A stretch of DNA of 60,527 nucleotides from the NCBI RefSeq assembly GCF_000955955.1, contig NZ_JYJG01000101.1:1-60527 (forward strand), in the 5' to 3' direction. Shown one piece after another: positions 1 through 12,861 of the stretch. How positions within the stretch are numbered: position 1 is the stretch's first letter; the number at the start of each line of letters is the position of its first letter. The position numbers were made by a program, and so were the translations under genes. Under the pieces are notes generated by a model, which saw nothing but the letters and a program-made list of their open reading frames with translations, made no database searches and was not told the origin of the DNA. This DNA is from Lentzea aerocolonigenes (GTDB lineage: Bacteria > Actinomycetota > Actinomycetes > Mycobacteriales > Pseudonocardiaceae).

Positions 1-1471
1 AACCAGTTGACGTAGAAGATCTTCGGCAGTTTCGCGGTGTCGGCGTGCTTGCCGGTGTCGATCCAGTGCTGGAAGTAGTCACCTGCGTGGTAGCCGATGA
101 ACGGCAGCATCGCCATGGGATCGCGGCGCACGACACCGACCTCGCCGGTGGCCGCGGCGGTGGTCTCCGAGGAGAGCGTGGCGGCCAGGAACACGCCGTG
201 CTGCCAGTCGAACGACTCGGTGACCAGCGGGACGGTGGTGGCGCGGCGGCCGCCGAAGAGGATCGCCGAGATGGGCACACCCCGAGGGTCGTCCCACTCC
301 GGCGCGGCGATCGGGCACTGGGCGATCGGGGTGCAGTAGCGGGAGTTCGGGTGGGACGAGAGGTCGTCGGACGCCGGAGTCCAGTCATCGCGGCGCCAGG
401 AGGTGAGGTAGTCCGGCGGGGTGTCGGTACAGCCCTCCCACCAGACGTCGCCGTCGTCGGTGAGCGCGACGTTGGTGAAGATGGAGTTGCCTTCGGCCAG
501 CGTGCGCATGGCGTTGGGATTGGTCTTCCAGCCGGTGCCGGGTGCGACGCCGAAGAAGCCGTTCTCCGGGTTGACGGCGTAGAGGCGGCCGTCGTCACCG
601 AAGCGCATCCAGGCGATGTCGTCGCCGAGGGTCTCGACCTTCCAGCCCGGGATCGAGGGTTCGAGCATGGCGAGGTTGGTCTTGCCGCACGCCGAGGGGA
701 ATGCGGCGGCGATGTAGTGGGCCCTGCCGTGCGGTGAAGTGAGTTTGAGGATCAGCATGCGTTCGGCGAGCCAGCCCTCGTCGCGGGCCATCACCGAAGC
801 GATGCGCAGGGAGTAGCACTTCTTGCCGAGCAGGGCGTTGCCGCCGTAGCCGGAACCGTAGCTCCAGATCATCCGTTCCTCGGGGAACTGGGTGATGTAC
901 TTGGTCCGGTCGCACGGCCACGGCACGTCGGCCTGGCCGGGCTTGAGCGGGGCGCCGACGGAGTGCAGGCAGCGCACGAAGTCCGCGTCCTCTCCGAACA
1001 GCGCGAGAGCGTCCGAGCCCATGCGGGTCATGATGTGCATGGAGATCACCACGTACTCGGAGTCGGTGATCTCGACGCCCAGCACGGGTTTGTCGGCGGT
1101 GATCGGTCCCATGCAGAACGGGATGACGTACATGGTGCGGCCCGCCATGCTGCCGCGTAGTGCTCGGTCATGATGACCTTCATGTCGAGCGGGTCCATCC
1201 AGTTGTTGGTGGGACCGGCGTCGGCTTCGTCGGCCGAGCAGATGTAGGTGCGGTCCTCGACTCTGGCGACATCGGTGGGGTCCGACGCGCACCAGAACGA
1301 GTTGGGCTTTTTGTCGAGCCGCACGAGCGTGCCCGCGTCGACCAGCTTGTCGGTCAGCCTGCGCCATTCCAGCGGGGAACCGTCGCACCACACCACCTGG
1401 TCGGGAGTGGTCAGCGCGGCGACCTCGGACACCCACTTCACGAGGCCGGGGTGTGCGGTGGGCGCGGTCAT
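1..1471 (-). CDS. pckG: Phosphoenolpyruvate carboxykinase (GTP), frameshifted and cut by the window edge
   Basis: Decarboxylates and phosphorylates oxaloacetate to PEP with GTP, at the gluconeogenesis/anaplerosis junction in the cytosol. Translation from ATG 1471 gives a typical GTP-PEPCK N-terminus, including [11 protein letters not shown] and [16 protein letters not shown]. After TEHY (near 1160) the frame breaks; from 1148 the next frame continues with [13 protein letters not shown]. Only 8 bases (1149-1156) lie where about 9 are expected, so one base is missing. The second frame holds the kinase motif [25 protein letters not shown] and the GTP-site segment [17 protein letters not shown]. 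It stays open to base 1, so roughly the last 120 residues lie outside. The start overlaps the upstream stop (ATGA), which indicates an operon. The product is certain. Whether the shift is real or a sequence error cannot be decided here. Confidence 0.9.
1149..1160 (-). other. Apparent -1 frameshift site in pckG
   Basis: On the minus strand the reading frame before this point ends in TEHY and the frame after it starts MAGRTMYV. The eight bases GCGGCAGC between them cannot encode the three residues that family members have here. No run of identical bases longer than two is present, so a slippery-site explanation is weak. A deletion or a base-calling error is more likely. Confidence 0.75.
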
Positions 1472-2220
1472 CGTGCGGCTCCTCGGTGCAGTGCGTCGGT
1501 GGCGAAGTCGGCGACCTGGTGGGTCAGCGCGTCGTCGGGACGCCGGGGCAGTTGTTCGCCCGGTGGGGTGGCGGCGGACAGCGCGACGGCGCAGGCGTGC
1601 TGCACGTCCGGGGTCAGCCGCGCGTGCGGGTGCTGGGTGAGCGCGTGCAGCAGGCCAGGTAGCGCGAGCATCGGGTCGCGGGCGGGGTCCGGCACGATCA
1701 CGGCCGGCGAGGCGTGGCGGGGCCTGGCGAACCTGCCGCCTCCGCCGACCAGGTTGATCACCACGTCGGCGTCGGCGGCGATGCGGCGCAAGGGAAACGC
1801 GAGCGCGTCGGCGAGGTTCCAGGTGGTGATGTCCCGGATTCCCGCCGTGAGCAGGACCGGGTTCAGCCGCGGCATGGTGTTGGCTCCCGCGATGACGACC
1901 CGGCTGGTCTCCGGCGCGCGACCGGCACGGGCCAGCGTGGTGAGCAGCGCGGCGGTCAGCGCGATGGCGGTGGTGTCCTGGTCGGTGAGCACCGGCATGT
2001 CCGTGATGAGGTCGCGCGCCTTCTGCTCACGGTCGGGCGTGGCGCGGACGAGCAGCACCGCGCTGGTGCCGGCCGGGAGGATGTGCAGCCCGTAGTCCGA
2101 GGCGATCACCCGGGCCGTCAGCCCTGCCTGTTCCTCGACCAGCGTGGCGTAGCGGCGCAGCACGGTGGTGGTGGCGCCGATCCCGCCCACCACGGCGACA
2201 ACAGCACGATTCGCGGTCAA
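1468..2220 (-). CDS. Malic-enzyme-like NAD-fold protein without the catalytic domain (250 aa)
   Basis: The middle and C-terminal parts resemble the NAD-binding half of malic enzymes. DQDTTAIA at residues 80-87 matches the malic-enzyme DDQHGTAIV element. It is followed by a Rossmann-like [14 protein letters not shown] (107-120), in which the usual GAGAAG glycines are mostly lost, and [10 protein letters not shown] near 153-162. The N-terminal 75 residues are too short for the malic catalytic domain and show no matching Tyr/Lys/acidic set, so it may be a pseudoenzyme or regulator. A TTG start at 2220 is chosen because it overlaps the upstream TGA (TTGA). The stop overlaps the pckG start (ATGA). 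The three genes therefore look translationally coupled, which suggests a role at the PEP/oxaloacetate/malate node. The function is inferred only. Confidence 0.65.
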
Positions 2221-2435
2221 CGGCCGAGTCCCGAGTTCTCCAGCAGTGCCGGGTCGATCCAGCTGGTGGTGTCGATGCCGTGCTGGGAGGCCAGGTCGAG
2301 CAGGTCGTGGATCCGGGCGCCGTGCAGGTGGATCTCGTAGTCGTGGCCGGCTTCCCTGGCCTGGTTCATCGCCACCCCGGCCTCGGCGATCTTGCTTCGC
2401 AGCTCTGCTTCGAACTCGCTCATCGTCTTCGACAT
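2217..2435 (-). CDS. Small charged helical protein, first gene of the pckG operon (72 aa)
   Basis: No known family was recognised. The start is MSKTMSEFEAEL at 2435, preceded directly by GAGGGAGAG; an ATG at 2486 would give a longer form. The N-terminal half is strongly helical and acidic/basic (SEFEAELRSKIAEAGVAMN). The second half (HDYEIHLHGARIHDLLDLA) also looks helical. No membrane segment or cysteine is seen. Its stop overlaps the TTG start of the malic-enzyme-like gene, so it is probably made together with that protein and PEP carboxykinase. It may be a small binding partner, which is inference. Confidence 0.6.
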   Translation of the reverse strand: MSKTMSEFEAELRSKIAEAGVAMNQAREAGHDYEIHLHGARIHDLLDLASQHGIDTTSWIDPALLENSGLGR

Positions 2436-2472
2436 CTCTCCCTCGTCCGCAGAATCCATCATCTGCGGACTT

Positions 2473-2529: not shown

Positions 2530-4002
2530 CTACAGATCGTTGCCGGCGTAGGACAGGTTGAAGCTCTTGTTGGTCAACGGGAAGTCGGGAACGATCGTGT
2601 CGGCCAGCGCGACCGGGAGTGCAGGCCAGTTGAAGAAGCTGGGGTCCACGATCTTCACCCGGCTCAGCCGCCCGTCGCCGGCCAGCTCGACGCGGTGCAC
2701 GATCGTGCCGCGCCAGCCCTCGACGATGCCGACGCCCGAGCCGCCGCTGACCCCGGCGACCGGGCCTGTCGCGCTGGTCCGGCCGCCGAGCATGTGGGTC
2801 AGGCTGGCGATCATGGCGATCGACGTCGTGATCTCCTCCGCGCGCACGAGGAAGCGGGACAACACGTCGCCGTCGGTGCGGGTGTGGACCGTGCGGGGGA
2901 ACTCCGCGGACAGGAACGGGTGGTCGTGCCGGGCGTCGACGTGCAGGCCGCTGGCACGGGCGACGACGCCGAGCGTGCCGAGGTCGGCGGCCTGGTCGCG
3001 GTGCAGCGGCGCGGTGCCGGTGAACCGGTCGGCCACCACCGTGTTGGACAGGGCCAGCTCGACGATCTCGGCCGCGTCGGCGCCGATGGCGGCCAGCTCG
3101 TGCGGGTCGGGCAGTGCGGTGATCGTGGCGCCGCCGGGGTGGATGGCGCCGCGCAGCAGGCGGTGTCCGGTGACGGTGTCGTTGATGCGCAGCAGACGTT
3201 CGCGAACGCGCTGGGAGTGGGCGTTGAGCACGCCATGAGCGACGTCGTTGCAGAGGGCGCCGATGTCGGCGATGTGGTTGTAGAGGCGTTCGAGCTCCAG
3301 CAGGATCGCGCGGATGCGTTGCGCGTCCTCGGGTACCGGCCACCGGAGTGCGTCTTCGACGGCGAGGCAGTAGGCCAGGGTGTGACCGACGGTGGTGTCA
3401 CCGCTGACCCGTTCGGCCAGCTCGATCCCCTGGTCGGAGGTGCGGCCGTGAAAGAGCTTTTCGAGTCCTCTGTGGACGAACCAGAGCCGGGCTTTGAGGT
3501 TGAGGATGGTCTCACCGACCACGGAGAAGCGGAAGTGGCCTGGGCCGATCATGCCCGCGTGCACCGGGCCGACCGGGATCTCGTACACGCCGGGGCCTTC
3601 GACCGTGCGGAAGGGGTACGGGCCGTCGACGCTGCCGAACTCGGGTGGATCGCCCGCGTCGGTGAGCATGGGGTACCAGCCCTGGGGCCAGTGGAAGTGG
3701 CGCACCAGTCGCTGCGGTAGCGGGTGGCCGGTGGGCACGATGCCGAACAGGTCGTGCATCTCGCGCTCGAACCGACCGGCGGCGAACGACAATCCGGTCA
3801 GGCTGGGCACTTCCGGGGCGTCCGGGTCGAGGGGGACGTGCAGTTCGACCCTCCGGTCCGGAGCGGAGGCGGTGAACAGGTACACCGCGCGCAACCGGTC
3901 ACCGTCGTCGTGACCGGCGGCGAGCGCGAGCCGAAAACCCTGCTCCAGCAGGGACCCGGCCTTATCCGGCAGGTCGGCCGGAGTGAGAGTCGTCGTGATC
4001 AT
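2530..4002 (-). CDS. hycE: Ehr-type large subunit (NuoC-NuoD fusion, HycE-like) without [NiFe] cysteines (490 aa)
   Basis: This is the peripheral large subunit of a group-4-hydrogenase-related membrane complex. Residues 1-135 form a NuoC-like domain (FEREMHDLFGI near 78-88). Residues 140-490 form the NuoD/HycE-like domain (VHAGMIGPGHFRF 147-159, WFVHRGLEKL 174-183). Where catalytic [NiFe] subunits have RVCGICG, this has RVSGDTTVGH (198-207). Where they have DPCxxC near the C-terminus it has DPSFFN (453-458). All four metal-binding cysteines are therefore absent, as in the energy-converting hydrogenase-related (Ehr) proteins, so hydrogen turnover is not expected. The ATG overlaps the hycQ stop (ATGA). 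It is the last gene of the operon and corresponds in order to mycobacterial Rv0087. Confidence 0.88.
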   Translation of the reverse strand: MITTTLTPADLPDKAGSLLEQGFRLALAAGHDDGDRLRAVYLFTASAPDRRVELHVPLDPDAPEVPSLTGLSFAAGRFEREMHDLFGIVPTGHPLPQRLVRHFHWPQGWYPMLTDAGDPPEFGSVDGPYPFRTVEGPGVYEIPVGPVHAGMIGPGHFRFSVVGETILNLKARLWFVHRGLEKLFHGRTSDQGIELAERVSGDTTVGHTLAYCLAVEDALRWPVPEDAQRIRAILLELERLYNHIADIGALCNDVAHGVLNAHSQRVRERLLRINDTVTGHRLLRGAIHPGGATITALPDPHELAAIGADAAEIVELALSNTVVADRFTGTAPLHRDQAADLGTLGVVARASGLHVDARHDHPFLSAEFPRTVHTRTDGDVLSRFLVRAEEITTSIAMIASLTHMLGGRTSATGPVAGVSGGSGVGIVEGWRGTIVHRVELAGDGRLSRVKIVDPSFFNWPALPVALADTIVPDFPLTNKSFNLSYAGNDL

Positions 4003-5453
4003 CGTGTCACCGCCAGAGGCTGGGTTGCCAGGTCGAGCAGGGCAGGCAGTGGTCCGGCGACGATGCCGAGCACAGCGCACGCGAGCAGCCCACCGGCCAG
4101 AGCGATCGGGATCGGCGTTGCGGCCGGGGTGTCCGATGTGGATGGTGCGCCGAGCAGCATCCGGCTGGTGTTCGTGATCAGGGCGGCGGCGATCACCAGC
4201 ACCAGCGCCAGCGCGGCAGTGGTCTGCCAGCCGAGACCGGCGGTGAAACCCGCACGGACGATGCCGAGCTCGCTGGCGAACAGGCTGAACGGAGGCAGGC
4301 CGGCCAGGGCGAGCACACCGAACCCGAAGGTCGTGGCGAGGGCGGGATGGCGGGCGATCAGGCCGCGCACACCGTCGATCTGGCTGGTGCCGGTGAACTG
4401 CAGGACGCGGCCCGCGCCGAGGAACAGCACAGCCTTGGCCAGCCCGTGCCCGAAGACGTGCAACAGTGCCGCGGTCAGTGCCAGAGGGCTGCCGATCGCG
4501 GCGCCGAAGGCGACCAGGCCGAGGTGCTCGATGCTCGAATAAGCCAGCATCCGCTTGTAGTCACGCTGTCCGATCAGCAACGACGCGGCGAGCGCGAGCG
4601 AGGCCAGCGCCATCACCGTGAGCAGGGTGCGGGCGAACCCCGCACCCAGTGCCGCGTCGCTGATCACCTTGACCCGCAGGATCGCGTAGAACGCCACCGA
4701 CAGCAGCACCCCGGACATCAGTGCCGACACCGGCGCCGGGGCCTGGGAATGCGCGTCGGGCAACCACGCGTGCAACGGGGCCAGGCCGGCCTTCGTGCCG
4801 AAACCGAGCACGAGCAACGCGATCGCGATCCGGGTCACGCCGGGGTTCAGCCCGGACGCGTGTGCGCTGAGTGTGGCGAGATCCAGGCCCGCGGTGCCAG
4901 GGGCGTGGGCGGCGGCGAAGTTGAGCACGATGGTGCCCAGCAGCGCGAGGGCGATACCGGCCGAGCAGATCACCACGTACTTCCACGCCGCCTCGACCGA
5001 GGCACGGGTGCGCCGCTGGCCGACCAGGAACGCGGTGACGATCGTGGTGGCCTCGACCGCCACCCACACCACACCGAGGTTCGCGGCGAGCACCGCGAGC
5101 GCCATGGTGGCCAGGAACAGTTGCACGAGCAGGCTGTGCCGCGCGGCAGTGCGGGCCGTGGCTCGTCCGTCGTCGATCTCCGCCCGGAAGTAGGCGGGAG
5201 TGGCGGCGGTGGCGACCAGCCCGACCGCGCCGATCACCAGCACCATGAACGCCGACAACGCATCCACCCGCAGCAATCCCGCCATCGCGGTCACCGGCCC
5301 GGACCGGCTCACCTCCACGGCGAGCACGATCGCGGTCGCCAGCACGAAGCCCGCAGAGGCGGCACTGACCCAGGTGGTGGCGCGTCGCCAACCGAAGGCC
5401 AGGTGGACGAGCGCACCGAGCACGGGCACTCCTACGGGAAGAAGAAGAGTCAT
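3999..5453 (-). CDS. hycQ: Proton-pumping-type antiporter subunit (NuoL/M/N family, HycQ/HyfF-like, 484 aa)
   Basis: This is a multi-spanning membrane subunit (about 13-14 hydrophobic segments) of the complex-I-like assembly. Family hallmarks are the helix-break motif HAWLPDAHSQAPAPVSALMS and the GQRDYKRMLAYSSIEHLG segment, with a conserved Lys in KAVLFLGAGR. Such subunits move H+ or Na+ across the membrane. The start MTLLLPVGVP overlaps the hycP stop by 4 bases, and the stop overlaps the hycE-like start. The position matches Rv0086 in mycobacteria. Confidence 0.88.
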   Translation of the reverse strand: MTLLLPVGVPVLGALVHLAFGWRRATTWVSAASAGFVLATAIVLAVEVSRSGPVTAMAGLLRVDALSAFMVLVIGAVGLVATAATPAYFRAEIDDGRATARTAARHSLLVQLFLATMALAVLAANLGVVWVAVEATTIVTAFLVGQRRTRASVEAAWKYVVICSAGIALALLGTIVLNFAAAHAPGTAGLDLATLSAHASGLNPGVTRIAIALLVLGFGTKAGLAPLHAWLPDAHSQAPAPVSALMSGVLLSVAFYAILRVKVISDAALGAGFARTLLTVMALASLALAASLLIGQRDYKRMLAYSSIEHLGLVAFGAAIGSPLALTAALLHVFGHGLAKAVLFLGAGRVLQFTGTSQIDGVRGLIARHPALATTFGFGVLALAGLPPFSLFASELGIVRAGFTAGLGWQTTAALALVLVIAAALITNTSRMLLGAPSTSDTPAATPIPIALAGGLLACAVLGIVAGPLPALLDLATQPLAVTR

Positions 5454-6103
5454 CAGTCGCGCAACTCCCGCAGTTCGTCGAGATCGGTGTCGCCGAAGGT
5501 CTCCCGCATCCGGGTGGTGAGCACCTGCAGGACCAGCACCGCCAGCAGGACGTCGAGCGACACCCCGAGCTCCACCACCAGGCCGACGCTCGTGGTGGTG
5601 AGGAAGCCGACCGCGGTGATCCCGTTGTCCATCAACAAGAAGCCGACCAGCTGCGACAGCGCGCGCCGCCGGGTGACAAGCACGAAGAACCCGATCAGCA
5701 CCACCGTCACGCCGACCGGGATGGCCTGGGTCGCCGCCGAAGGCGCCAAGGCCACCAGCGGTTGCGACACCGCGTAGGCCAGCAGTGTCAGCGCGGCCGC
5801 GGCCAGCAGCGACGCGGACACGTTCACCAGCGGGCTGGCCTCCCGCCGTGACTCCCCCGCACCGGCCAGCGCCCGGCGCAACAGGTACGGCAACACGCCT
5901 GCCCGTAACACGAACACGCCCAGGGCGACGGCCCACAGCTCCGCGGAGTTCTCGTGCGCGGCCAGCACTCCCACGAGAACAGCGAGCGCGGCGCCCTGCA
6001 ACGCGAACACCCGGATGATCACCACGAGCTCGCGGCGCCACAGCACCAGCACGGCGGTCAGCAACAGCGCGCCGCAGGCCAGGTCGAGCAGCTGGACGTA
6101 CAC
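5453..6103 (-). CDS. hycP: NuoK-like membrane subunit (HycP/HyfE-like, 216 aa)
   Basis: This small hydrophobic subunit has about seven segments and resembles HyfE of hydrogenase-4 and Rv0085. GTG 6103 (VYVQLLDLACG) is chosen because it follows AAAGGGGAACT and lies 10 bases after the hycD stop; no earlier start gives a clean hydrophobic N-terminus. The motif LLMDNGITAVGF resembles the NuoK-type helix. The tail FGDTDLDELRELRD is charged and presumably cytosolic. The stop overlaps the hycQ start. Confidence 0.82.
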   Translation of the reverse strand: MYVQLLDLACGALLLTAVLVLWRRELVVIIRVFALQGAALAVLVGVLAAHENSAELWAVALGVFVLRAGVLPYLLRRALAGAGESRREASPLVNVSASLLAAAALTLLAYAVSQPLVALAPSAATQAIPVGVTVVLIGFFVLVTRRRALSQLVGFLLMDNGITAVGFLTTTSVGLVVELGVSLDVLLAVLVLQVLTTRMRETFGDTDLDELRELRD

Positions 6104-6113
6104 AGTTCCCCTT

Positions 6114-7061
6114 TCAGGCCAAGAAGAACGAGGCCGCGACGGCCAGCAACGCGAGCAGGAACGATCCGGCCAGCAGTTCGGGCACCCGGAACAGCCGCAG
6201 CTTGGCCACGAACACCTCGGCGGCCGCGAGCAACCCGCCCAGCACACCGACCTTCACCATCAGGGCCAGTACGCCGATCAGCACCGCCAGCGGCGTGGCC
6301 TCGGTAGCGATTCCCCACGGTGCGAACAAGTTCGCCAGCAAACCGAGGAACACCGACAACCGCATGGCCGAGGCCAGTTCCACCAACGCCAGATCAGGGC
6401 CCGCATACTCCAGCACCATCGCTTCGTGGACCATCGTCAGCTCAAGATGCGTCGACGGGTTGTCCACCGGGATGCGTCCCGTCTCGGCCACGATCACCAC
6501 GACCAGCGCGACCGCGGCCAGCAGACTCACCGGCGAGATCACCCGCGCGGGATCCTGCAGCGTCGACGAGACGATCGTGCCCAGGTTCGTCGACCCGACC
6601 CGCACCGACAAAGCGAAGATCGCCACCAGCAGCGTCGGCTCGACCAGCGCCAGGATCGTCATCTCCCGGCTGGCGCCCATCCCGCCGAACGCCGTGCCCG
6701 TGTCCAACCCCGCCAACGCGAGCGCCACCGCACCCAGTGCCAGCAACGCCACCACCGCGAACAGGTCCGCCACCGGGTCCAGCGCGGATTCCGTCGCGAC
6801 GAACGGCACCACGACCGCGACGACCAGCGTCGTTGCCACCAGCACCAGCGGCGCGAACCGGAACACCTCGCTCGTGCCCCGCGGGGCTATCCGCTCCTTG
6901 CGCAGCAGCTTGCGCAGATCACGCCACGGCTGCCCGACACCCGCACCGGCACGTCCCTCCAGCCGGGCCCGCACCTGCCGCATCACCCCGACCAGCAACG
7001 GCGAACCGGCCACGATCAGCACCGGCTGCACCACACCACCGACCACGCCCAAAGCGCTCAT
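6114..7061 (-). CDS. hycD: NuoH-like membrane subunit (HycD/HyfC-like, 315 aa)
   Basis: This is the membrane anchor that joins the peripheral arm to the antiporter subunits in complex-I-like machines. Eight hydrophobic segments are visible. The NuoH/HycD signatures are ASREMTILALVEP in the middle and ETGRIPVDNPSTHLELTM with HEAMVLEYAGPDLALVE further on. These carry the acidic residues thought to couple redox change to ion movement. ATG 7061 overlaps the HyfB stop (ATGA). It corresponds to Rv0084. Confidence 0.88.
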   Translation of the reverse strand: MSALGVVGGVVQPVLIVAGSPLLVGVMRQVRARLEGRAGAGVGQPWRDLRKLLRKERIAPRGTSEVFRFAPLVLVATTLVVAVVVPFVATESALDPVADLFAVVALLALGAVALALAGLDTGTAFGGMGASREMTILALVEPTLLVAIFALSVRVGSTNLGTIVSSTLQDPARVISPVSLLAAVALVVVIVAETGRIPVDNPSTHLELTMVHEAMVLEYAGPDLALVELASAMRLSVFLGLLANLFAPWGIATEATPLAVLIGVLALMVKVGVLGGLLAAAEVFVAKLRLFRVPELLAGSFLLALLAVAASFFLA

Positions 7062-9055
7062 CGGGTCACCGCCAGCAAAATCAGCACGCCGCACACCGCG
7101 TAGAAGCCGTAACCGAGATAGCGGTGCACGCTGCCCGGTGCAAGCCCGCGCCCGGCCCTGCCCCACGCGGCGATCAGCCGCAGCACCGGCTGGTACAGGC
7201 GCCGCTCGATCCGGTCGGGCACCTTTCGCCGGTATTCGACGGCCTGCACGAGATAGCGCGACTCCTGGTGATGTGACACGTCCACGTCCAGCTCCGGCTG
7301 CACCACGTCGTCGAACACCCGCTGCAACGGCTCGGCGAACGACGTCGCCGTGTACTCCATCCGCGCCGACATCGGTCCCCCACCGCAGTCCCACAACCGC
7401 GCCGTCCGGCGAACCCGCCGTACCGCTGCAGTCCGCACCACACCCGCCACCACGACCACCGCAGCGACGAGCCCCAGAGCCAGCAGCAGCGGCGACAAAG
7501 CCCCAGTGACCTGATCCAGCCGCAGAATCACGTCTCCGGACACCGCAACTCCCCCGGCCGCGGCCTGGACCGCCGGCAGAATCCCGGCCGGCCACAGCGC
7601 GAGCACCACGCAGACCACCGCGGCAACGCCCATCCCGGCGAGCATGGTGAGCGGGCTCTCGTGCGCGTCCACCACGGCATCGCTGCGAGGTTTGGCCAGG
7701 AATCCCACCCCGAACGCCTTCACGAACGTGGCCACCGCGAGCCCCGCCGTCAACGCCACCGCGGCCACCGCAACCGGCATCGCGATCGCCGCGGCCACCC
7801 CGCCCGCGGGCAAGCCGTGGATCAACGCCTGCAACAACAACCACTCCGACACGAACGCCGTCCCCGGCGGCAACGCCGACGCCGCCAGCGCCCCCACCCC
7901 GAACGCCGCCGTCGTCACCGGCATGACCGGCCGCAACCCACCGAGCGCATCGAGATCGCGGGTACCGGTCGCGTGCAGCACCGACCCCGCCGCGAGGAAC
8001 AGCACCGTCTTGAACGCCGCGTGCCCGACCAGGTGCAGCAGTGCCGCGGTCAACGCCAGCGCGGCCAGGGCGTGATCACCGGAGGACGCGAACAGCCCGG
8101 CCGCGCCGACCCCGATGAGCACCAGCCCCATGTTCTCGGTCGTCGACAGGCCCAGCAGCCGCTTCAGGTCCGAGCTCATCGCGGCCTGCAGAATCCCGTA
8201 CACCGCCGACACCGCACCCAGCGCGAGCACCAGCAGCCACCACCACGCTGGACCCCCACCGAGCAGATCGACGCCAACCCGCACCACCCCGTACACCCCG
8301 AGGTTCACCATCGCCGCCGACATCAACGCCGACACGTGACTCGGGGCCTCCGGATGCGCCCGCGGCAACCACGCGTGCAACGGCACGATGCCCGCCTTGG
8401 ACGCGAAACCCGCCAACGTCAACACGAACACCACGCCCGCCACCGCAGGCGACAGCTGCCGTCCCGCCTCGCGCAACGCCGTGAACGAGTCATCCGGCGC
8501 CTGCGCGACGAACACCATCAGTCCAATCAGGACGGACACGAAACCCAGGTGCGTCATCACCGCGTACCACCGGCCGGCCGACGCCACCCGCGGGCCGCGC
8601 CGGTGCTCCGCGACCACGAGCACCAACGATGCCAGTGCCATCAGTTCCCAGCACACCAGCAACGTGCCCACGTTCGCTGCCGCCGGGACGAGCACCATCG
8701 CCACCACGAACACCGGTAATGCCGTCTGCACACCACGTGCCCGCAGGTCCGCCGTGTCCGCATAGGACACCGAGTAGATCCCTGCCGCCACGGCGACGCC
8801 GCCGGTCACCGCCACGAACAACGCGCCCAGCGGATCCAGCGTCAACGACACGCCTGACAGCGGCAAGACATCAGGCAGCACAACGGAAAACGAGCCTCCG
8901 GCCAGCGCCGCGGCCCCTGCGGCCACCGCGGCCGCGCCCGTCAATGCCGTCCCCGTACCGATCAGCGCCGGCCGCGCGGGGAGGAGGGCAGCGATCAGCG
9001 CGGTCATCAGTCCGATGGCCACGGCCGCGGCCATCCCTGTCGCAGCGAGGTTCAT
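7058..9055 (-). CDS. hyfB: Large antiporter-type subunit (HyfB/HycC-like, 665 aa)
   Basis: This is the largest membrane subunit of the Ehr-like complex, from the NuoL/M/N family, with about 15 or more hydrophobic segments. The core motif LHAWLPRAHPEAPSHVSALM is present, followed by SSDLKRLLGLSTTENMGLV and LVGHAAFKTVLFLAAGS. The last about 100 residues form a soluble tail (DDVVQPELDVDVSHHQESR) and a final hydrophobic helix, as in HyfB/HycC. ATG 9055 overlaps the NuoB-like stop (ATGA) and the stop overlaps the hycD start. It corresponds to Rv0083. Confidence 0.87.
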   Translation of the reverse strand: MNLAATGMAAAVAIGLMTALIAALLPARPALIGTGTALTGAAAVAAGAAALAGGSFSVVLPDVLPLSGVSLTLDPLGALFVAVTGGVAVAAGIYSVSYADTADLRARGVQTALPVFVVAMVLVPAAANVGTLLVCWELMALASLVLVVAEHRRGPRVASAGRWYAVMTHLGFVSVLIGLMVFVAQAPDDSFTALREAGRQLSPAVAGVVFVLTLAGFASKAGIVPLHAWLPRAHPEAPSHVSALMSAAMVNLGVYGVVRVGVDLLGGGPAWWWLLVLALGAVSAVYGILQAAMSSDLKRLLGLSTTENMGLVLIGVGAAGLFASSGDHALAALALTAALLHLVGHAAFKTVLFLAAGSVLHATGTRDLDALGGLRPVMPVTTAAFGVGALAASALPPGTAFVSEWLLLQALIHGLPAGGVAAAIAMPVAVAAVALTAGLAVATFVKAFGVGFLAKPRSDAVVDAHESPLTMLAGMGVAAVVCVVLALWPAGILPAVQAAAGGVAVSGDVILRLDQVTGALSPLLLALGLVAAVVVVAGVVRTAAVRRVRRTARLWDCGGGPMSARMEYTATSFAEPLQRVFDDVVQPELDVDVSHHQESRYLVQAVEYRRKVPDRIERRLYQPVLRLIAAWGRAGRGLAPGSVHRYLGYGFYAVCGVLILLAVTR

Positions 9056-9537
9056 CGGCCGGTCAGCTTCCGCAGTCCCTCGACGATCGCCTCCGGCCGC
9101 GGCGGGCAACCCGGGATCTCCACGTCGACCGGCACCACATCCCGCACGGCACCGGCCACCCCGTAGGCTCCCGCGAACACGCCGCAGTCGCGGGCGCAGT
9201 CCCCCACCGCCACCACCAGCTTCGGCGCCGGGACCGCGTCGAACGTCCGCCGCAACGGCTCGGCCATGTTCCGCGTCACGACCCCCGTCACCAGCAACAC
9301 GTCGGCGTGCCGCGGCGAGGCCACCAGCCGCGCCCCGTACCGCTCGCCGTCGTGGACCGGCCCGAACGCCGACCCGATCTCGACCTCGCAGCCGTTGCAC
9401 GACCCCGCGTCAACGTGCCGGATCTGCACGGACCCACCCAGCACCGCGGCCCGCTCGGGCCGCTCACCGTCCGGCAGCGGAGGGGCCGGTTCGGCCACTC
9501 GCCCGGTCCGGCGGATCTTGCGCCACAAACTCAGCAC
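9052..9537 (-). CDS. NuoB-like [4Fe-4S] small subunit (HycG/HyfI-like, 161 aa)
   Basis: This is the first structural gene of the complex and carries the N2-type iron-sulfur cluster next to the quinone/active-site region. Cys47 and Cys50 (AGSCNGCE), Cys114 (VGDCARDC) and Cys144 (IPGCPPRPE) provide the four ligands, so the electron-transfer part looks intact although the partner large subunit lacks its metal site. GTG 9537 is preceded by GGGAG 8 bases upstream. No ferredoxin-type (HycB/HyfH) gene follows, as in the Rv0082-Rv0087 cluster. Confidence 0.88.
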   Translation of the reverse strand: MLSLWRKIRRTGRVAEPAPPLPDGERPERAAVLGGSVQIRHVDAGSCNGCEVEIGSAFGPVHDGERYGARLVASPRHADVLLVTGVVTRNMAEPLRRTFDAVPAPKLVVAVGDCARDCGVFAGAYGVAGAVRDVVPVDVEIPGCPPRPEAIVEGLRKLTGR

Positions 9538-9623: not shown

Positions 9624-9974
9624 TCAACCGGTGCGCGACACCGGCGGACTCGTCGCGCGGAGGTCCTCGAGCAGCTCGACCTGCCCGGACAGCACGACCG
9701 ACAGGATCCGGCGCGCGGCGACCAGCAGCTCCGCCACATGCGGACTGGTCAGCGAGTAGTACACCGCCCCACCTTCCTTGCGGGTGGTGACCAGCCCGGC
9801 GCGGCGCAGCACCGCCAGCTGCTGGGACAGGTTCGCGGGCTCGACACCCACCTGCGGCACCATCTCCGCGACCGCGTGCTCACGCAGGCTGAGCAGCTCC
9901 AGCACCCGGATCCGCGCCGGATGCCCGAGCGTCTTGAAGAACTCTGCTTTCAGCTGGTACAGCGGCTTGCTCAC
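9624..9974 (-). CDS. ArsR/SmtB-family repressor of the Ehr-like operon (116 aa)
   Basis: This is a compact winged-helix DNA-binding protein. VSKPLYQLKAEFFKTLGHPA opens the fold, VEPANLSQQLAVLRRAGLV is the recognition helix region and EGGAVYYSL the wing. There are no cysteines, so the classical thiol metal sites are absent and the inducer is not obvious. GTG 9974 has AAGGGG 8 bases upstream. It lies directly before the hyc genes in the same direction, as Rv0081 does in mycobacteria. A perfect dyad lies 55 bp upstream, which suggests autoregulation and control of the operon. Confidence 0.87.
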   Translation of the reverse strand: MSKPLYQLKAEFFKTLGHPARIRVLELLSLREHAVAEMVPQVGVEPANLSQQLAVLRRAGLVTTRKEGGAVYYSLTSPHVAELLVAARRILSVVLSGQVELLEDLRATSPPVSRTG

Positions 9975-10028: not shown

Positions 10029-10048
10029 ACTTGCTAACCTTAGCAAGT
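10029..10048. promoter_or_regulatory. ArsR operator, perfect inverted repeat
   Basis: ACTTGCTAACCTTAGCAAGT has two exact 9-base arms around CC. It lies between the divergent arsR gene (start 9974) and the receiver gene (start 10081), where an ArsR-family repressor would control both promoters. Size and symmetry fit ArsR/SmtB sites. Binding itself is inferred. Confidence 0.75.
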
Positions 10049-10080: not shown

Positions 10081-10473
10081 GTGACCGGAACTCGCGACCC
10101 GCTGAGGGTTCTCGTCGCCGACGGATCGTCGTTCTTCCGCGACGCACTCCGGGAATTCCTGCGCGGCGCCTCCGACATCGATGTCGTCGCCGTCGCCGGC
10201 TCAGCGGACGACGCGATCCGCCTGGCCGAACAGCACCAGCCCGACATCGCCGTCGTGGACGTCCACCTGTCGGGCGACGGGTTGCACGCCATCCGCCGTA
10301 TCCACCAGAAGACACCCGCGGTGAAGCTCGTCGCGTTGTGGGGACTCATCGACGGGCCGTCCGAGACCGAACTCCGCGAGCTCGGCGTCGTCGAATACGT
10401 GATCAAAGGCGCGCCGAACCGCAAGATCCTGGCGGCCATCCGCCGTGCAGCCGAGGAAGGCGCCACTCTGTGA
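10081..10473 (+). CDS. Stand-alone response-regulator receiver domain (130 aa)
   Basis: This is a CheY-like receiver fold of the NarL/FixJ type with no output domain. RVLVADGSSFFRDALREFL starts the fold with Asp14 and Asp60 (AVVDVHLSGDG) is the phosphoacceptor. VEYVIKGAP holds the conserved Lys. At the usual Thr/Ser position the sequence is VALWG, so the switch residue looks altered. GTG 10081 is chosen because it begins the domain directly. The stop overlaps the DUF5313 gene start (GTGA). It diverges from arsR across the shared operator. It may act through protein contacts or be an unfinished two-component remnant. Confidence 0.75.
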   Translation: MTGTRDPLRVLVADGSSFFRDALREFLRGASDIDVVAVAGSADDAIRLAEQHQPDIAVVDVHLSGDGLHAIRRIHQKTPAVKLVALWGLIDGPSETELRELGVVEYVIKGAPNRKILAAIRRAAEEGATL

Positions 10474-10871
10474 CACTGCGTGGAACCAGACCCAATCCGG
10501 CCCAATGGCTGTGGTACGCGCTGGGCGGGCGACTGCCACAACGATGCAACCCGTGGGTCCTGCACGACGTCACCTGCCGCACCTGGGCGGTCCGGCACTT
10601 CGTGCGCGCGTTCTTCCAGATGTCGCCGATCCTGCTGCTGCTCCTGTTGCCAGGACCGCTCTACATCAGGATCCTGTCGATCCTGCTCGGCATGCTCGTC
10701 GGCTACTTCTACTCGATGACCTACATGTGGCACACCACCGAGCAACGCCTCGTCAAGCACGGCTTCGAAAGAGGACTCGGCGCCCAGACCCGCCGCGCCA
10801 AACACGCCGAGGCCGACGCCCTCGCCAAAGCAGCCTACGAACGGCGATACCGCAGCAACCACTCAGGTTGA
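10470..10871 (+). CDS. DUF5313 membrane protein (133 aa)
   Basis: This is an actinobacterial family of unknown function. The N-terminus shows NPAQWLWYALGGRLPQR and CNPWVLHDVTCRTWAVRHF. Two adjacent hydrophobic helices (about residues 45-80) follow, then YSMTYMWHTTEQRLVKHGF and a basic, charged tail. GTG 10470 overlaps the stop of the receiver gene by 4 bases, so the two are made together. The link between a soluble receiver and a membrane protein is suggestive of a small signalling unit, but nothing in the sequence proves it. Confidence 0.78.
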   Translation: MTLRGTRPNPAQWLWYALGGRLPQRCNPWVLHDVTCRTWAVRHFVRAFFQMSPILLLLLLPGPLYIRILSILLGMLVGYFYSMTYMWHTTEQRLVKHGFERGLGAQTRRAKHAEADALAKAAYERRYRSNHSG

Positions 10872-11907: not shown

Positions 11908-11924
11908 GACCGTCCCGGACGGTC
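11908..11924. terminator. Short hairpin at the end of the cold-shock gene
   Basis: GACCGTC-CCG-GACGGTC is a perfect 7-bp stem with a 3-base loop. It overlaps the stop codon of the minus-strand cold-shock gene and the end of the plus-strand remnant, so it could terminate both. Confidence 0.45.
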
Positions 11925-12861
11925 AGGCGTGCTCGACGGCATCGGCCTGCGGGCCCCGGTCGCTCTGCCGGATGCGGAAGCGCACCCGCTCCCCGGCCAC
12001 CAGTGGCTCGCCGGAGACCACCGAGACGTGCACGAAGAGATCGGGCCCGCCCGCGTCGGGGGTGATGAAACCGAAGCCGCGGTCCGCGTCGTAGCGGGCC
12101 ACCGTGCCGTCGCCGGCGCGGGCTGCGGGCCGGGTGGCCGAACGGGCCTGGCTGGGGGCCGCGGCGGCCTCCACCGGCTCGCCGGTGGCCACGAACCGCA
12201 CCTCGCGCGCCTGACGACCCTGGTCCACGGTGACCGTGGTGAACGAGACCCGGTCGCCCTCGGCCGGCAGATACACCTCGTCGACCAGGGCGCGCCCGTG
12301 CAGGAAGACATCACCCACCCCGTCGTCGGCGGCCACGAAGCCGAACGACTTCTCCTCGTCGAACCACAGGACGGAGCCGTCGGCGCCGTCGCCGGGCGCG
12401 ACCAGAGGGGCCCTGCGGACCCCGGCGTCGAAGCTCAGCGGCACCAGGTGCTGGGCCTGCGGCCCCTTCTCCCCGGCGATGACGACGAAGGCCACCCGCT
12501 GCCCGGCCGCGAGGACTCCCCCGGTGACGATGGCGGAGGAGTGCACGAACACCTCCGCACCCCCGCCGTCCGGCGCGGCGAACCCGTAGCCCTTGGCCGG
12601 CTCGTACCAGGAGACGGTCGCGAGCACACCCAGGGCCGCGTCGGGCGCGACGTCCCCGGTGACGGCGACGTGCAGCGCCTGCGGACCGCGGGGCCCCTCA
12701 CCGGTCTCGAACTCCACCGTCTGGCCCTCGCGCAGCGCCTTGGCCGCGCCCTCGCCCCGCACCTGCGAGACGTGCACGAAGATGTCGGCGCTGCCGTCAT
12801 CCGGGGCGAGGAAGCCGAAGCCGCGCTCGAGGTCGTACCAGCGGACGGTTCCCTGCTGCAC
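11923..12861 (-). CDS. Protein made of four tandem cold-shock domains (312 aa)
   Basis: Four nucleic-acid-binding CSD units follow each other. CSD1 is about 1-68 (RGFGFL 13-18, IFVH 27-30). CSD2 is about 80-145 (KGYGF 90-94, VFVH 104-107). CSD3 is about 161-228 (SFGFV 172-176, VFLH 185-188). CSD4 is about 250-312 (RGFGFI 261-266, LFVH 275-278). Each keeps RNP1- and RNP2-like motifs and the GPQA(L/Q) end strand. CSD3 has lost the RNP1 basic-Gly pair (KS instead of KG). Ordinary bacterial Csp proteins are single 65-70 residue domains. GTG 12861 (VQQGTVRWYD) has AGGAG 6 bases upstream. It is probably a single-gene unit binding RNA or single-stranded DNA. Confidence 0.88.
   Translation of the reverse strand: MQQGTVRWYDLERGFGFLAPDDGSADIFVHVSQVRGEGAAKALREGQTVEFETGEGPRGPQALHVAVTGDVAPDAALGVLATVSWYEPAKGYGFAAPDGGGAEVFVHSSAIVTGGVLAAGQRVAFVVIAGEKGPQAQHLVPLSFDAGVRRAPLVAPGDGADGSVLWFDEEKSFGFVAADDGVGDVFLHGRALVDEVYLPAEGDRVSFTTVTVDQGRQAREVRFVATGEPVEAAAAPSQARSATRPAARAGDGTVARYDADRGFGFITPDAGGPDLFVHVSVVSGEPLVAGERVRFRIRQSDRGPQADAVEHA

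What the first reader, a model, noticed from the sequence alone, without database searches (positions are those of the whole stretch)
2530..9537. Ehr-like complex-I relative with the [NiFe] site erased but the iron-sulfur subunit intact
All four cysteines of the large subunit are replaced (RVSGDTTVGH and DPSFFN), while the NuoB-like subunit keeps four Cys and all ion-pumping subunits are complete. The machine must do something other than hydrogen chemistry. Gene order matches mycobacterial Rv0082-Rv0087. No ferredoxin or formate dehydrogenase gene is present, so electron donor and acceptor are unknown.
Basis: partly seen in the sequence, partly recalled or inferred. Interest (0 to 1): 0.7.

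Follow-up and report, generated by a model that had tools for sequence, protein, structure and literature searches.

The report
Hydrogenase-like ion pump without metal site
An actinobacterial gene cluster encodes a relative of respiratory complex I and of hydrogenases that has lost its nickel-iron site but kept an iron-sulfur cluster site and its ion-pumping parts; it belongs to a known group whose function is unsolved.

Summary
On the minus strand, 2530-9537, lies a complete six-gene complex-I/hydrogenase-4-like operon (NuoB-, HyfB-, NuoH-, HyfE-, HyfF-, NuoCD-like) behind an ArsR gene and a perfect palindrome. All four [NiFe] cysteines are replaced in place (S200, T203, S484, G487), nearly invariantly in 81 sequences; HypD was not found in the genome. 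The NuoB-like subunit keeps a hydrogenase-type four-Cys site plus a fifth Cys. Complex I's quinone His/Tyr are absent, and no ferredoxin-like subunit was found. This is an Ehr complex, a kind already described, also for M. tuberculosis Rv0081-Rv0087 (PMC6728331), function unknown. Not found in print by my searches: a graded series of relatives, one with a ferredoxin fused to the NuoB-like subunit, one still carrying the four cysteines, and two large families whose NuoB-like subunit lost its cluster cysteines, one of them with the window's gene order and pocket. Best reading: ferredoxin-fed ion pump (0.4). Boldest: redox-gated or redox-free ion transporter.

The parts
10031..10046 (.). perfect palindrome TTGCTAA-nn-TTAGCAA, likely operator of the ArsR gene
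   Evidence: only match in the window at up to 3 mismatches, 0.08 expected; 12 or more of 14 positions in 27 of 58 clusters, 0 in 50 shuffled sets
9624..9974 (-). ArsR/SmtB-type regulator (Rv0081-like)
   Evidence: upstream on the same strand in at least 58 of 73 clusters that hold the small subunit
9052..9537 (-). NuoB/HyfI-like small subunit, 161 aa
   Evidence: Oxidored_q6 6.4e-31; best solved relatives MbhJ and FHL subunit 7; model pLDDT 90.4
9388..9399 (-). CxxC of the cluster site, C47 and C50
   Evidence: 73 of 73
9184..9198 (-). C114 (cluster ligand) to C118 (fifth Cys)
   Evidence: C114 73 of 73, C118 69 of 73
9106..9108 (-). C144, cluster ligand
   Evidence: 73 of 73
7058..9055 (-). 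HyfB-like antiporter-type membrane subunit, 665 aa
   Evidence: Proton_antipo_M 8.2e-48; E137, K220, K298, K349 at 99-100%, n = 73
6114..7061 (-). HyfC/NuoH-like membrane subunit, 315 aa
   Evidence: NADHdh 3.3e-40; D99, E141, E193, D200, E207, E213 at 100%, n = 75
5453..6103 (-). HyfE-like membrane subunit, 216 aa
   Evidence: NF008556 4.8e-24, below its curated cut-off
3999..5453 (-). HyfF-like antiporter-type membrane subunit, 484 aa
   Evidence: Proton_antipo_M 1.1e-50; E134, K221, K300, K340 at 99-100%, n = 78
2530..4002 (-). HyfG/NuoCD-like large subunit, 490 aa
   Evidence: Complex1_30kDa, Complex1_49kDa and NiFeSe_Hases matches; best solved relative FHL subunit 5
3382..3411 (-). first former [NiFe] motif, RVSGDTTVGH (198-207), S200 and T203 in place of Cys
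2533..2565 (-). second former [NiFe] motif at the C-terminus, SFNLSYAGNDL (480-490), S484 and G487 in place of Cys
2629..2646 (-).
   Evidence: aligns with AATYAN of HycE

Best explanation
A six-subunit Ehr complex (energy-converting hydrogenase-related). Shown by sequence: a complex-I-like membrane arm with its charged residues kept, a NuoB-like subunit with one hydrogenase-type four-Cys [4Fe-4S] site, and a NuoCD-like subunit whose [NiFe] ligands became Ser/Thr/Ser/Gly under strong constraint. Inferred: a soluble low-potential carrier, most likely ferredoxin, docks on the NuoB-like subunit, where relatives carry a fused ferredoxin; electrons pass through the single cluster to a small acceptor (menaquinone or similar) in the chamber that held the metal, without complex I's His/Tyr; this drives ion translocation. 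The linked ArsR protein controls expression, as for the hypoxia-linked mycobacterial relative.
For: [NiFe] ligands replaced, not decayed; HypD not found in the genome; four cluster Cys 73 of 73; membrane residues kept; relatives L091 and L092 have a ferredoxin motif in the frame of the small subunit, Pfam-confirmed for L091; the genome has a 2-oxoacid:ferredoxin oxidoreductase-type gene as a possible source of reduced ferredoxin; purifying selection; ArsR palindrome and hypoxia link of Rv0081 (PMC6177252, passages and abstract start); MBS is a precedent for ferredoxin-fed ion pumping without [NiFe] and without H38/Y87 (PMC7684303 passages).
Against: No ferredoxin-like or NuoI-like subunit in the window or the 80 loci; no conserved electron partner among neighbours; quinone ligands H38/Y87 absent; the pocket is equally conserved in L094-type relatives that lack the cluster cysteines, so its conservation does not prove electron transfer; the pocket is unreliable in the model.
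Confidence: 0.4

Rival explanations
1. Redox-gated or redox-independent ion transporter. The membrane arm works like an Mrp-type antiporter or ion channel and the former hydrogenase arm is a gate. In the window's family the cluster would sense redox state, O2 or NO; in cluster-less relatives the gate works without it.
For: L094-type relatives keep one of four cluster Cys in 120 of 120 listed hits, L107-type none in 120 of 120; L094, L109, L110, L112 share the six genes in the same order and the pocket residues with the window; the antiporter and NuoH-like residues are kept in L094; no electron inlet subunit.
Against: In the window's own family the cluster Cys are 73 of 73, so a cluster matters there. 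L107 carries a ferredoxin domain. In L106 and L107 K298 of HyfB is lost, and in L094 two HyfE acids (E178, D184) are Q and N. No transport data.
Confidence: 0.25
2. Run in reverse: the ion gradient drives electrons from menaquinol up to ferredoxin, supplying low-potential electrons.
For: Inference from reversibility of this superfamily (recalled); the genome has a ferredoxin-linked 2-oxoacid oxidoreductase-type gene.
Against: No ferredoxin-consuming partner beside the cluster; quinone ligands absent.
Confidence: 0.1
3. MBS-like reductase: the proximal cluster itself reduces polysulfide or another small substrate in the emptied chamber.
For: H38/Y87 absent as in MBS; a fifth Cys near the cluster, 69 of 73.
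Against: MBS has a shortened motif with one Cys off the cluster and keeps two [NiFe]-site Cys (passages); here the CxxC spacing is as in HycG and none of the four Cys remains. C118 is also present in L098, L101, L102 and L115, which carry the four large-subunit Cys, so it is not tied to the loss.
Confidence: 0.08
4. It is still a hydrogenase or formate hydrogenlyase, as database names suggest.
For: Names such as 'hydrogenase large subunit' given by sources.
Against: All four ligands gone; HypD not found; no C-terminal extension; no HyfA-, HyfH- or HycI-like gene in the window. Of 16 genomes with this large subunit in an order-wide draw, 9 show no HypD.
Confidence: 0.02

Closest known systems
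Ehr complexes, including M. tuberculosis Rv0081-Rv0087 and Sulfobacillus Ehr
   Same: Six-gene set, ArsR gene in front (mycobacteria), no [NiFe] motifs, function unknown (PMC6728331, PMC4378227, PMC5484546; passages)
   Different: Nothing that would set the window apart from this kind; M. tuberculosis proteins were not aligned here, L022 (Candidatus Mycobacterium methanotrophicum) was: 62-77% identity per subunit
E. coli hydrogenase 4 / formate hydrogenlyase (Hyf, Hyc)
   Same: Closest solved relative of both soluble subunits (rank 1; for the small subunit MbhJ and FHL subunit 7 lead); HyfB, C, E, F, G, I counterparts
   Different: No [NiFe] Cys, no HyfA, HyfD or HyfH counterpart in the operon, no protease gene
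MBS (Mbx) of Pyrococcus furiosus
   Same: [NiFe] site lost, quinone H38/Y87 absent, antiporter-like subunits (PMC7684303 passages)
   Different: MBS has MbsN, keeps two [NiFe]-site Cys and has a three-Cys cluster; here no such subunit, no such Cys, four cluster Cys
Respiratory complex I
   Same: NuoB, CD, H and antiporter-type subunits homologous
   Different: No NuoE, F or G match beside it; CxxC instead of tandem Cys; quinone His/Tyr absent. The genome's own NuoD keeps both residues (L001)

Membership tests
Ehr (energy-converting hydrogenase-related) | Large subunit homologous to group 4 hydrogenase / NuoD | tested here: met
Ehr (energy-converting hydrogenase-related) | Both CxxC [NiFe] motifs absent | tested here: met
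   (81 sequences)
Ehr (energy-converting hydrogenase-related) | Antiporter-like and NuoH-like membrane subunits | tested here: met
Ehr (energy-converting hydrogenase-related) | No hydrogenase activity; ion translocation | not testable with these tools
   needs biochemistry
Group 4 [NiFe] hydrogenase / FHL | Four [NiFe] cysteines | tested here: not met
Group 4 [NiFe] hydrogenase / FHL | [NiFe] maturation genes in the genome | tested here: not met
   HypD: no match, 4 of 14 control genomes ring; genome 96.6% complete in 648 contigs, so not absolute; other Hyp genes not searched
Complex I | Quinone ligands H38 and Y87 of the 49 kDa subunit | tested here: not met
   I152 and G201
Complex I | Tandem-Cys N2 site and NADH module | tested here: not met
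MBS sulfane reductase | Three-Cys proximal cluster and two remaining [NiFe]-site Cys | tested here: not met
   sequence only: CxxC spacing as in HycG, no remaining Cys; feature from PMC7684303
MBS sulfane reductase | Polysulfide reduction with ferredoxin | not testable with these tools
   needs biochemistry

The most novel reading that the evidence does not exclude
The six-subunit machines of this group are not oxidoreductases. They are ion translocators whose former hydrogenase arm became a ligand- or redox-sensing gate. The pocket residues SGD(T/S) and NKSFNLSYxGNDL are kept both in the window's family, which keeps one cluster site, and in L094-type relatives, which keep only one of four cluster cysteines. 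The window's single cluster would then be a sensor, and the L094 type a complex-I-like machine with no redox centre at all.
Probability: 0.22. Interest if true: 0.88.

Novelty: new member of a known kind. Interest (0 to 1): 0.5.

Why it matters
What Ehr complexes do is an open question that also touches a hypoxia-linked operon of M. tuberculosis. The series found here (metal and cluster cysteines; cluster plus fused ferredoxin; cluster alone; no cluster cysteines) ranks the parts by dispensability and turns the question into a test: does ion transport by these machines need electrons? A cluster-less relative with the same gene order and pocket would be a good system for separating redox chemistry from ion movement in the complex I superfamily.

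Tried and rejected
Looking at those hits led to the ArsR palindrome.

Conserved partner gene: genes called by my own simple caller around 80 loci plus the window were clustered. Only ArsR recurs widely. A PEPCK family occurs in 9 of 81 loci, a roughly 200-275 aa protein of unknown family in 13 of 81, a flavin/PPOX-like family (named by recall) in 14 and a CBS-domain family (named by recall) in 13. No electron partner was found; the fetched flanks are at most 10 kb and some are cut by contig ends.

One single loss of the [NiFe] site: inconclusive. The HyfG tree puts the Cys-bearing type outside all [NiFe]-less types (0.884 for the latter group; ligand columns were not masked), but the concatenated tree puts it with the window's family (1.0), as do HyfI (0.937), HyfC (0.999) and HyfF (0.998); HyfB puts it near (0.684) with L095 closer. 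In the concatenated tree the window's family itself has support of only 0.205 as a clade. Repeated loss, gene replacement, or a regain are not separated.

Cys-bearing relatives as proven hydrogenases: not established. Of five such genomes tested (G186, G218, G111, G078, G100) two have HypD (G612 not tested), and their first motif lacks the usual His.

Pocket inspection by modelling: the HyfG model is poor exactly there (segments 128-178 and 458-490 under pLDDT 50), and no coordinates are given.
Full report
WHAT IS THERE. On the minus strand, head to tail, lie ArsR (9624-9974), a NuoB/HyfI-like protein (9052-9537), HyfB-like (7058-9055), HyfC/NuoH-like (6114-7061), HyfE-like (5453-6103), HyfF-like (3999-5453) and HyfG/NuoCD-like (2530-4002). 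Hyf names are used for homology only.

THE LOST METAL SITE. HycE C241, C244, C531 and C534 fall on S200, T203, S484 and G487. Among 81 sequences these are S 81; T 76, S 5; S 80, T 1; G 81. D202 and H207 are 81 of 81. In the 120 best protein hits the same positions read S 117, T 117, S 119 and G 120. The site did not decay; it was replaced and frozen. The protein ends at GNDL with no C-terminal extension, whereas HycE continues. That the four HycE cysteines are the [NiFe] ligands is established knowledge, recalled.

NOT QUINONE BINDING AS IN COMPLEX I. In the ungapped part of the alignment with the T. thermophilus 49 kDa subunit, H38 and Y87, named in PMC7684303 as proposed quinone ligands (passages), fall on I152 and G201. 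The neighbouring acid of HycE is G153 in the window, E in 68 of 81 and G in 13. The genome's standard NuoD keeps both residues (L001).

THE IRON-SULFUR SUBUNIT. C47, C50, C114 and C144 are present in 73 of 73 sequences (window plus 72 of 80 loci; in eight loci no HyfI was found in the piece held). Spacing is CxxC, as in HycG. A fifth Cys, C118, is present in 69 of 73 and D113, next to C114, in 73 of 73; E. coli HycG, HyfI and NuoB have Gly and Ala there. The model is confident (pLDDT 90.4); its best structural matches are the small subunits of formate hydrogenlyase and MBH. The large-subunit model (pLDDT 79.0) matches FHL subunit 5 best, but its pocket segments are unreliable.

THE MEMBRANE ARM. 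The residues that I recall as TM5 Glu, TM7 Lys, TM8 Lys and TM12 Lys of antiporter-type subunits are E137, K220, K298, K349 in HyfB (n = 73) and E134, K221, K300, K340 in HyfF (n = 78), each 99-100% conserved; NuoH-like acids D99, E141, E193, D200, E207 and E213 are at 100% (n = 75). Loci whose piece lacked or truncated the gene were dropped: 8, 3 and 6 of 80.

NO ELECTRON INLET FOUND. tblastn with HyfA, HyfH, HycF, NuoE, NuoF, NuoG and HycI at E <= 1e-3 found nothing in the 80 loci and the window except one weak HyfA hit in L051; an unrelated ferredoxin could be missed. The window has no plausible ferredoxin motif. The genome has two matches to the 2-oxoacid:ferredoxin oxidoreductase domain POR_N and eight molybdopterin-domain matches, none in this contig. 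HypD was not found.

REGULATION. An ArsR gene precedes the small subunit on the same strand in at least 58 of the 73 clusters that hold it. A perfect palindrome, TTGCTAA-n2-TTAGCAA, lies at 10031-10046, the only match in the window at up to three mismatches (0.08 expected; 8 of 100 shuffles had one). At least 12 of 14 positions are matched upstream of ArsR (20) or between ArsR and the small subunit (11) in 27 of 58 clusters in all, against none in 50 dinucleotide-shuffled sets; 31 of 58 do not reach it. The motif was read from these loci, so this is a description, not an independent test. Rv0081 of M. tuberculosis binds an inverted repeat in its own promoter (PMC6177252, passages).

DISTRIBUTION. 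In an order-wide draw 16 of 200 genomes have the large subunit at E <= 1e-90. 46 of 200 have HypD; 7 of the 16 are among them and 9 are not (this assumes that both calls drew the same 200, as the handles shown suggest). The complex does not depend on [NiFe] maturation.

A GRADED SERIES OF RELATIVES. From a draw of 246 genomes of the phylum I took 20 of the 22 best places outside the own genome (G109 and G087 left out), and later 8 of the 35 places listed for L094-like small subunits. (a) L100 and L103-L105: full hydrogenase-4 types with HyfA, HyfH and HycI matches and all cysteines. (b) L096, L098, L099, L101, L102 and L115: cysteines at all four places, C-terminus NKSFELCYxCxDR, close to the window's NKSFNLSYAGNDL. 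(c) L091 and L092: the four cysteines absent, C-terminus NKSFNLSYAGNDL, ferredoxin motif in the frame of the small subunit (Pfam confirmed for L091). (d) The window's family, with L088-L090 (the C-terminus of L090 is cut off by its contig). (e) L094: same six genes in the same order, same pocket, but a small subunit reading STNAC, GDDAIDGG and GDPPSP. In 120 of 120 listed hits of it one of the four cysteines is kept; the others are T 113 / S 7, D 120 and D 119 / A 1. Source names include Thermoleophilia and Syntrophales MAGs. L109-L112 repeat the gene order; L109, L110 and L112 have the same C-terminus, L111 is cut; L108 holds only part of the cluster. L109 has two ferredoxin-type motifs beside, not in, the operon. 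(f) L106 and L107: none of the four cluster cysteines, 120 of 120 listed hits of L107 (mostly D, E, D, S); L107 has a ferredoxin domain in front. (g) Mixed types: L097 keeps four cluster cysteines, L093 and L095 two, L113 none and L114 three by eye. In L094 the HyfB, HyfC and HyfF residues named above are kept, but HyfE E178 and D184 are Q and N; in L106 and L107 K298 of HyfB is lost. Each hit list is the best 120 of thousands (7985 and 3541 matches), so it shows the heart of each family, not its edges.

WHAT IT MEANS. The pocket is frozen in types with and without cluster cysteines, so its conservation alone does not prove that it receives electrons. The cluster is frozen in the window's family, so it matters there. 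The fused ferredoxin of L091 suggests where electrons would enter. I therefore hold a ferredoxin-fed pump as most likely (0.4) and a redox-gated or redox-free transporter as its main rival (0.25). Trees do not settle how often the metal site was lost (see Tried and rejected).

PRIOR KNOWLEDGE. [quoted passage not shown] PMC4378227 (passages) describes Sulfobacillus complexes with six syntenic genes and no metal motifs. PMC10284858, PMC10432482 and PMC6349859 (passages) report Ehr complexes without the [NiFe]-binding residues in other groups. He 2011 is not held; Marreiros 2013 was seen only in reference lists. I met no mention of relatives lacking the cluster cysteines in the results of my searches, of which I read passages of a few papers; the library holds open-licence papers only.

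VERDICT. A real, well-conserved Ehr complex: new member of a known, unsolved kind. The added value is the corrected motif, the palindrome, and the series that ends in machines without cluster cysteines.

Noticed in passing
L094:1885-2340 and L108-L112; hits P0121-P0240: NuoB-like small subunits keeping one of four cluster cysteines (T/S, C, D, D), in six-gene Ehr operons with the window's gene order: complex-I-like machines that may have no redox centre.
   Followed up: partly
L107:6334-7188 and L106; hits P0241-P0360: NuoB-like subunits with none of the four cluster cysteines (mostly D, E, D, S); in L107 fused to a single-cluster ferredoxin domain.
   Followed up: partly
L096, L098, L099, L101, L102, L115: Large subunits with cysteines at all four [NiFe] places but no usual His; three of five genomes tested show no HypD, so what they bind is unclear.
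   Followed up: partly
window 2217-2462 (-): Small protein (about 60-80 aa) of no known family, found in 26 of 81 loci, in several of them beside a second ArsR gene.
   Followed up: partly
window 1468-2193 (-): Protein of 241 aa without Pfam or NCBIfam match, in 13 of 81 loci, downstream of the operon in close relatives, often before PEPCK.
   Followed up: no
window 1-1471 (-): GTP-dependent PEPCK at the contig edge in two different frames: PEPCK_N positions 1-97 in 1046-1471 and 98-218 plus the C-terminal domain in 3-1148. Real break or sequencing error; not mended.
   Followed up: no
window 11923-12861 (-): One protein with four cold-shock domain stretches, unusual to me.
   Followed up: no
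window 10081-10871 (+): Stand-alone response-regulator receiver domain followed by a DUF5313 protein, divergent from the ArsR gene.
   Followed up: no
G000:C52 (L002): A second, short NuoD-like protein (361 aa) in the same genome, with NRHDWL where NuoD usually has a Tyr motif.
   Followed up: no
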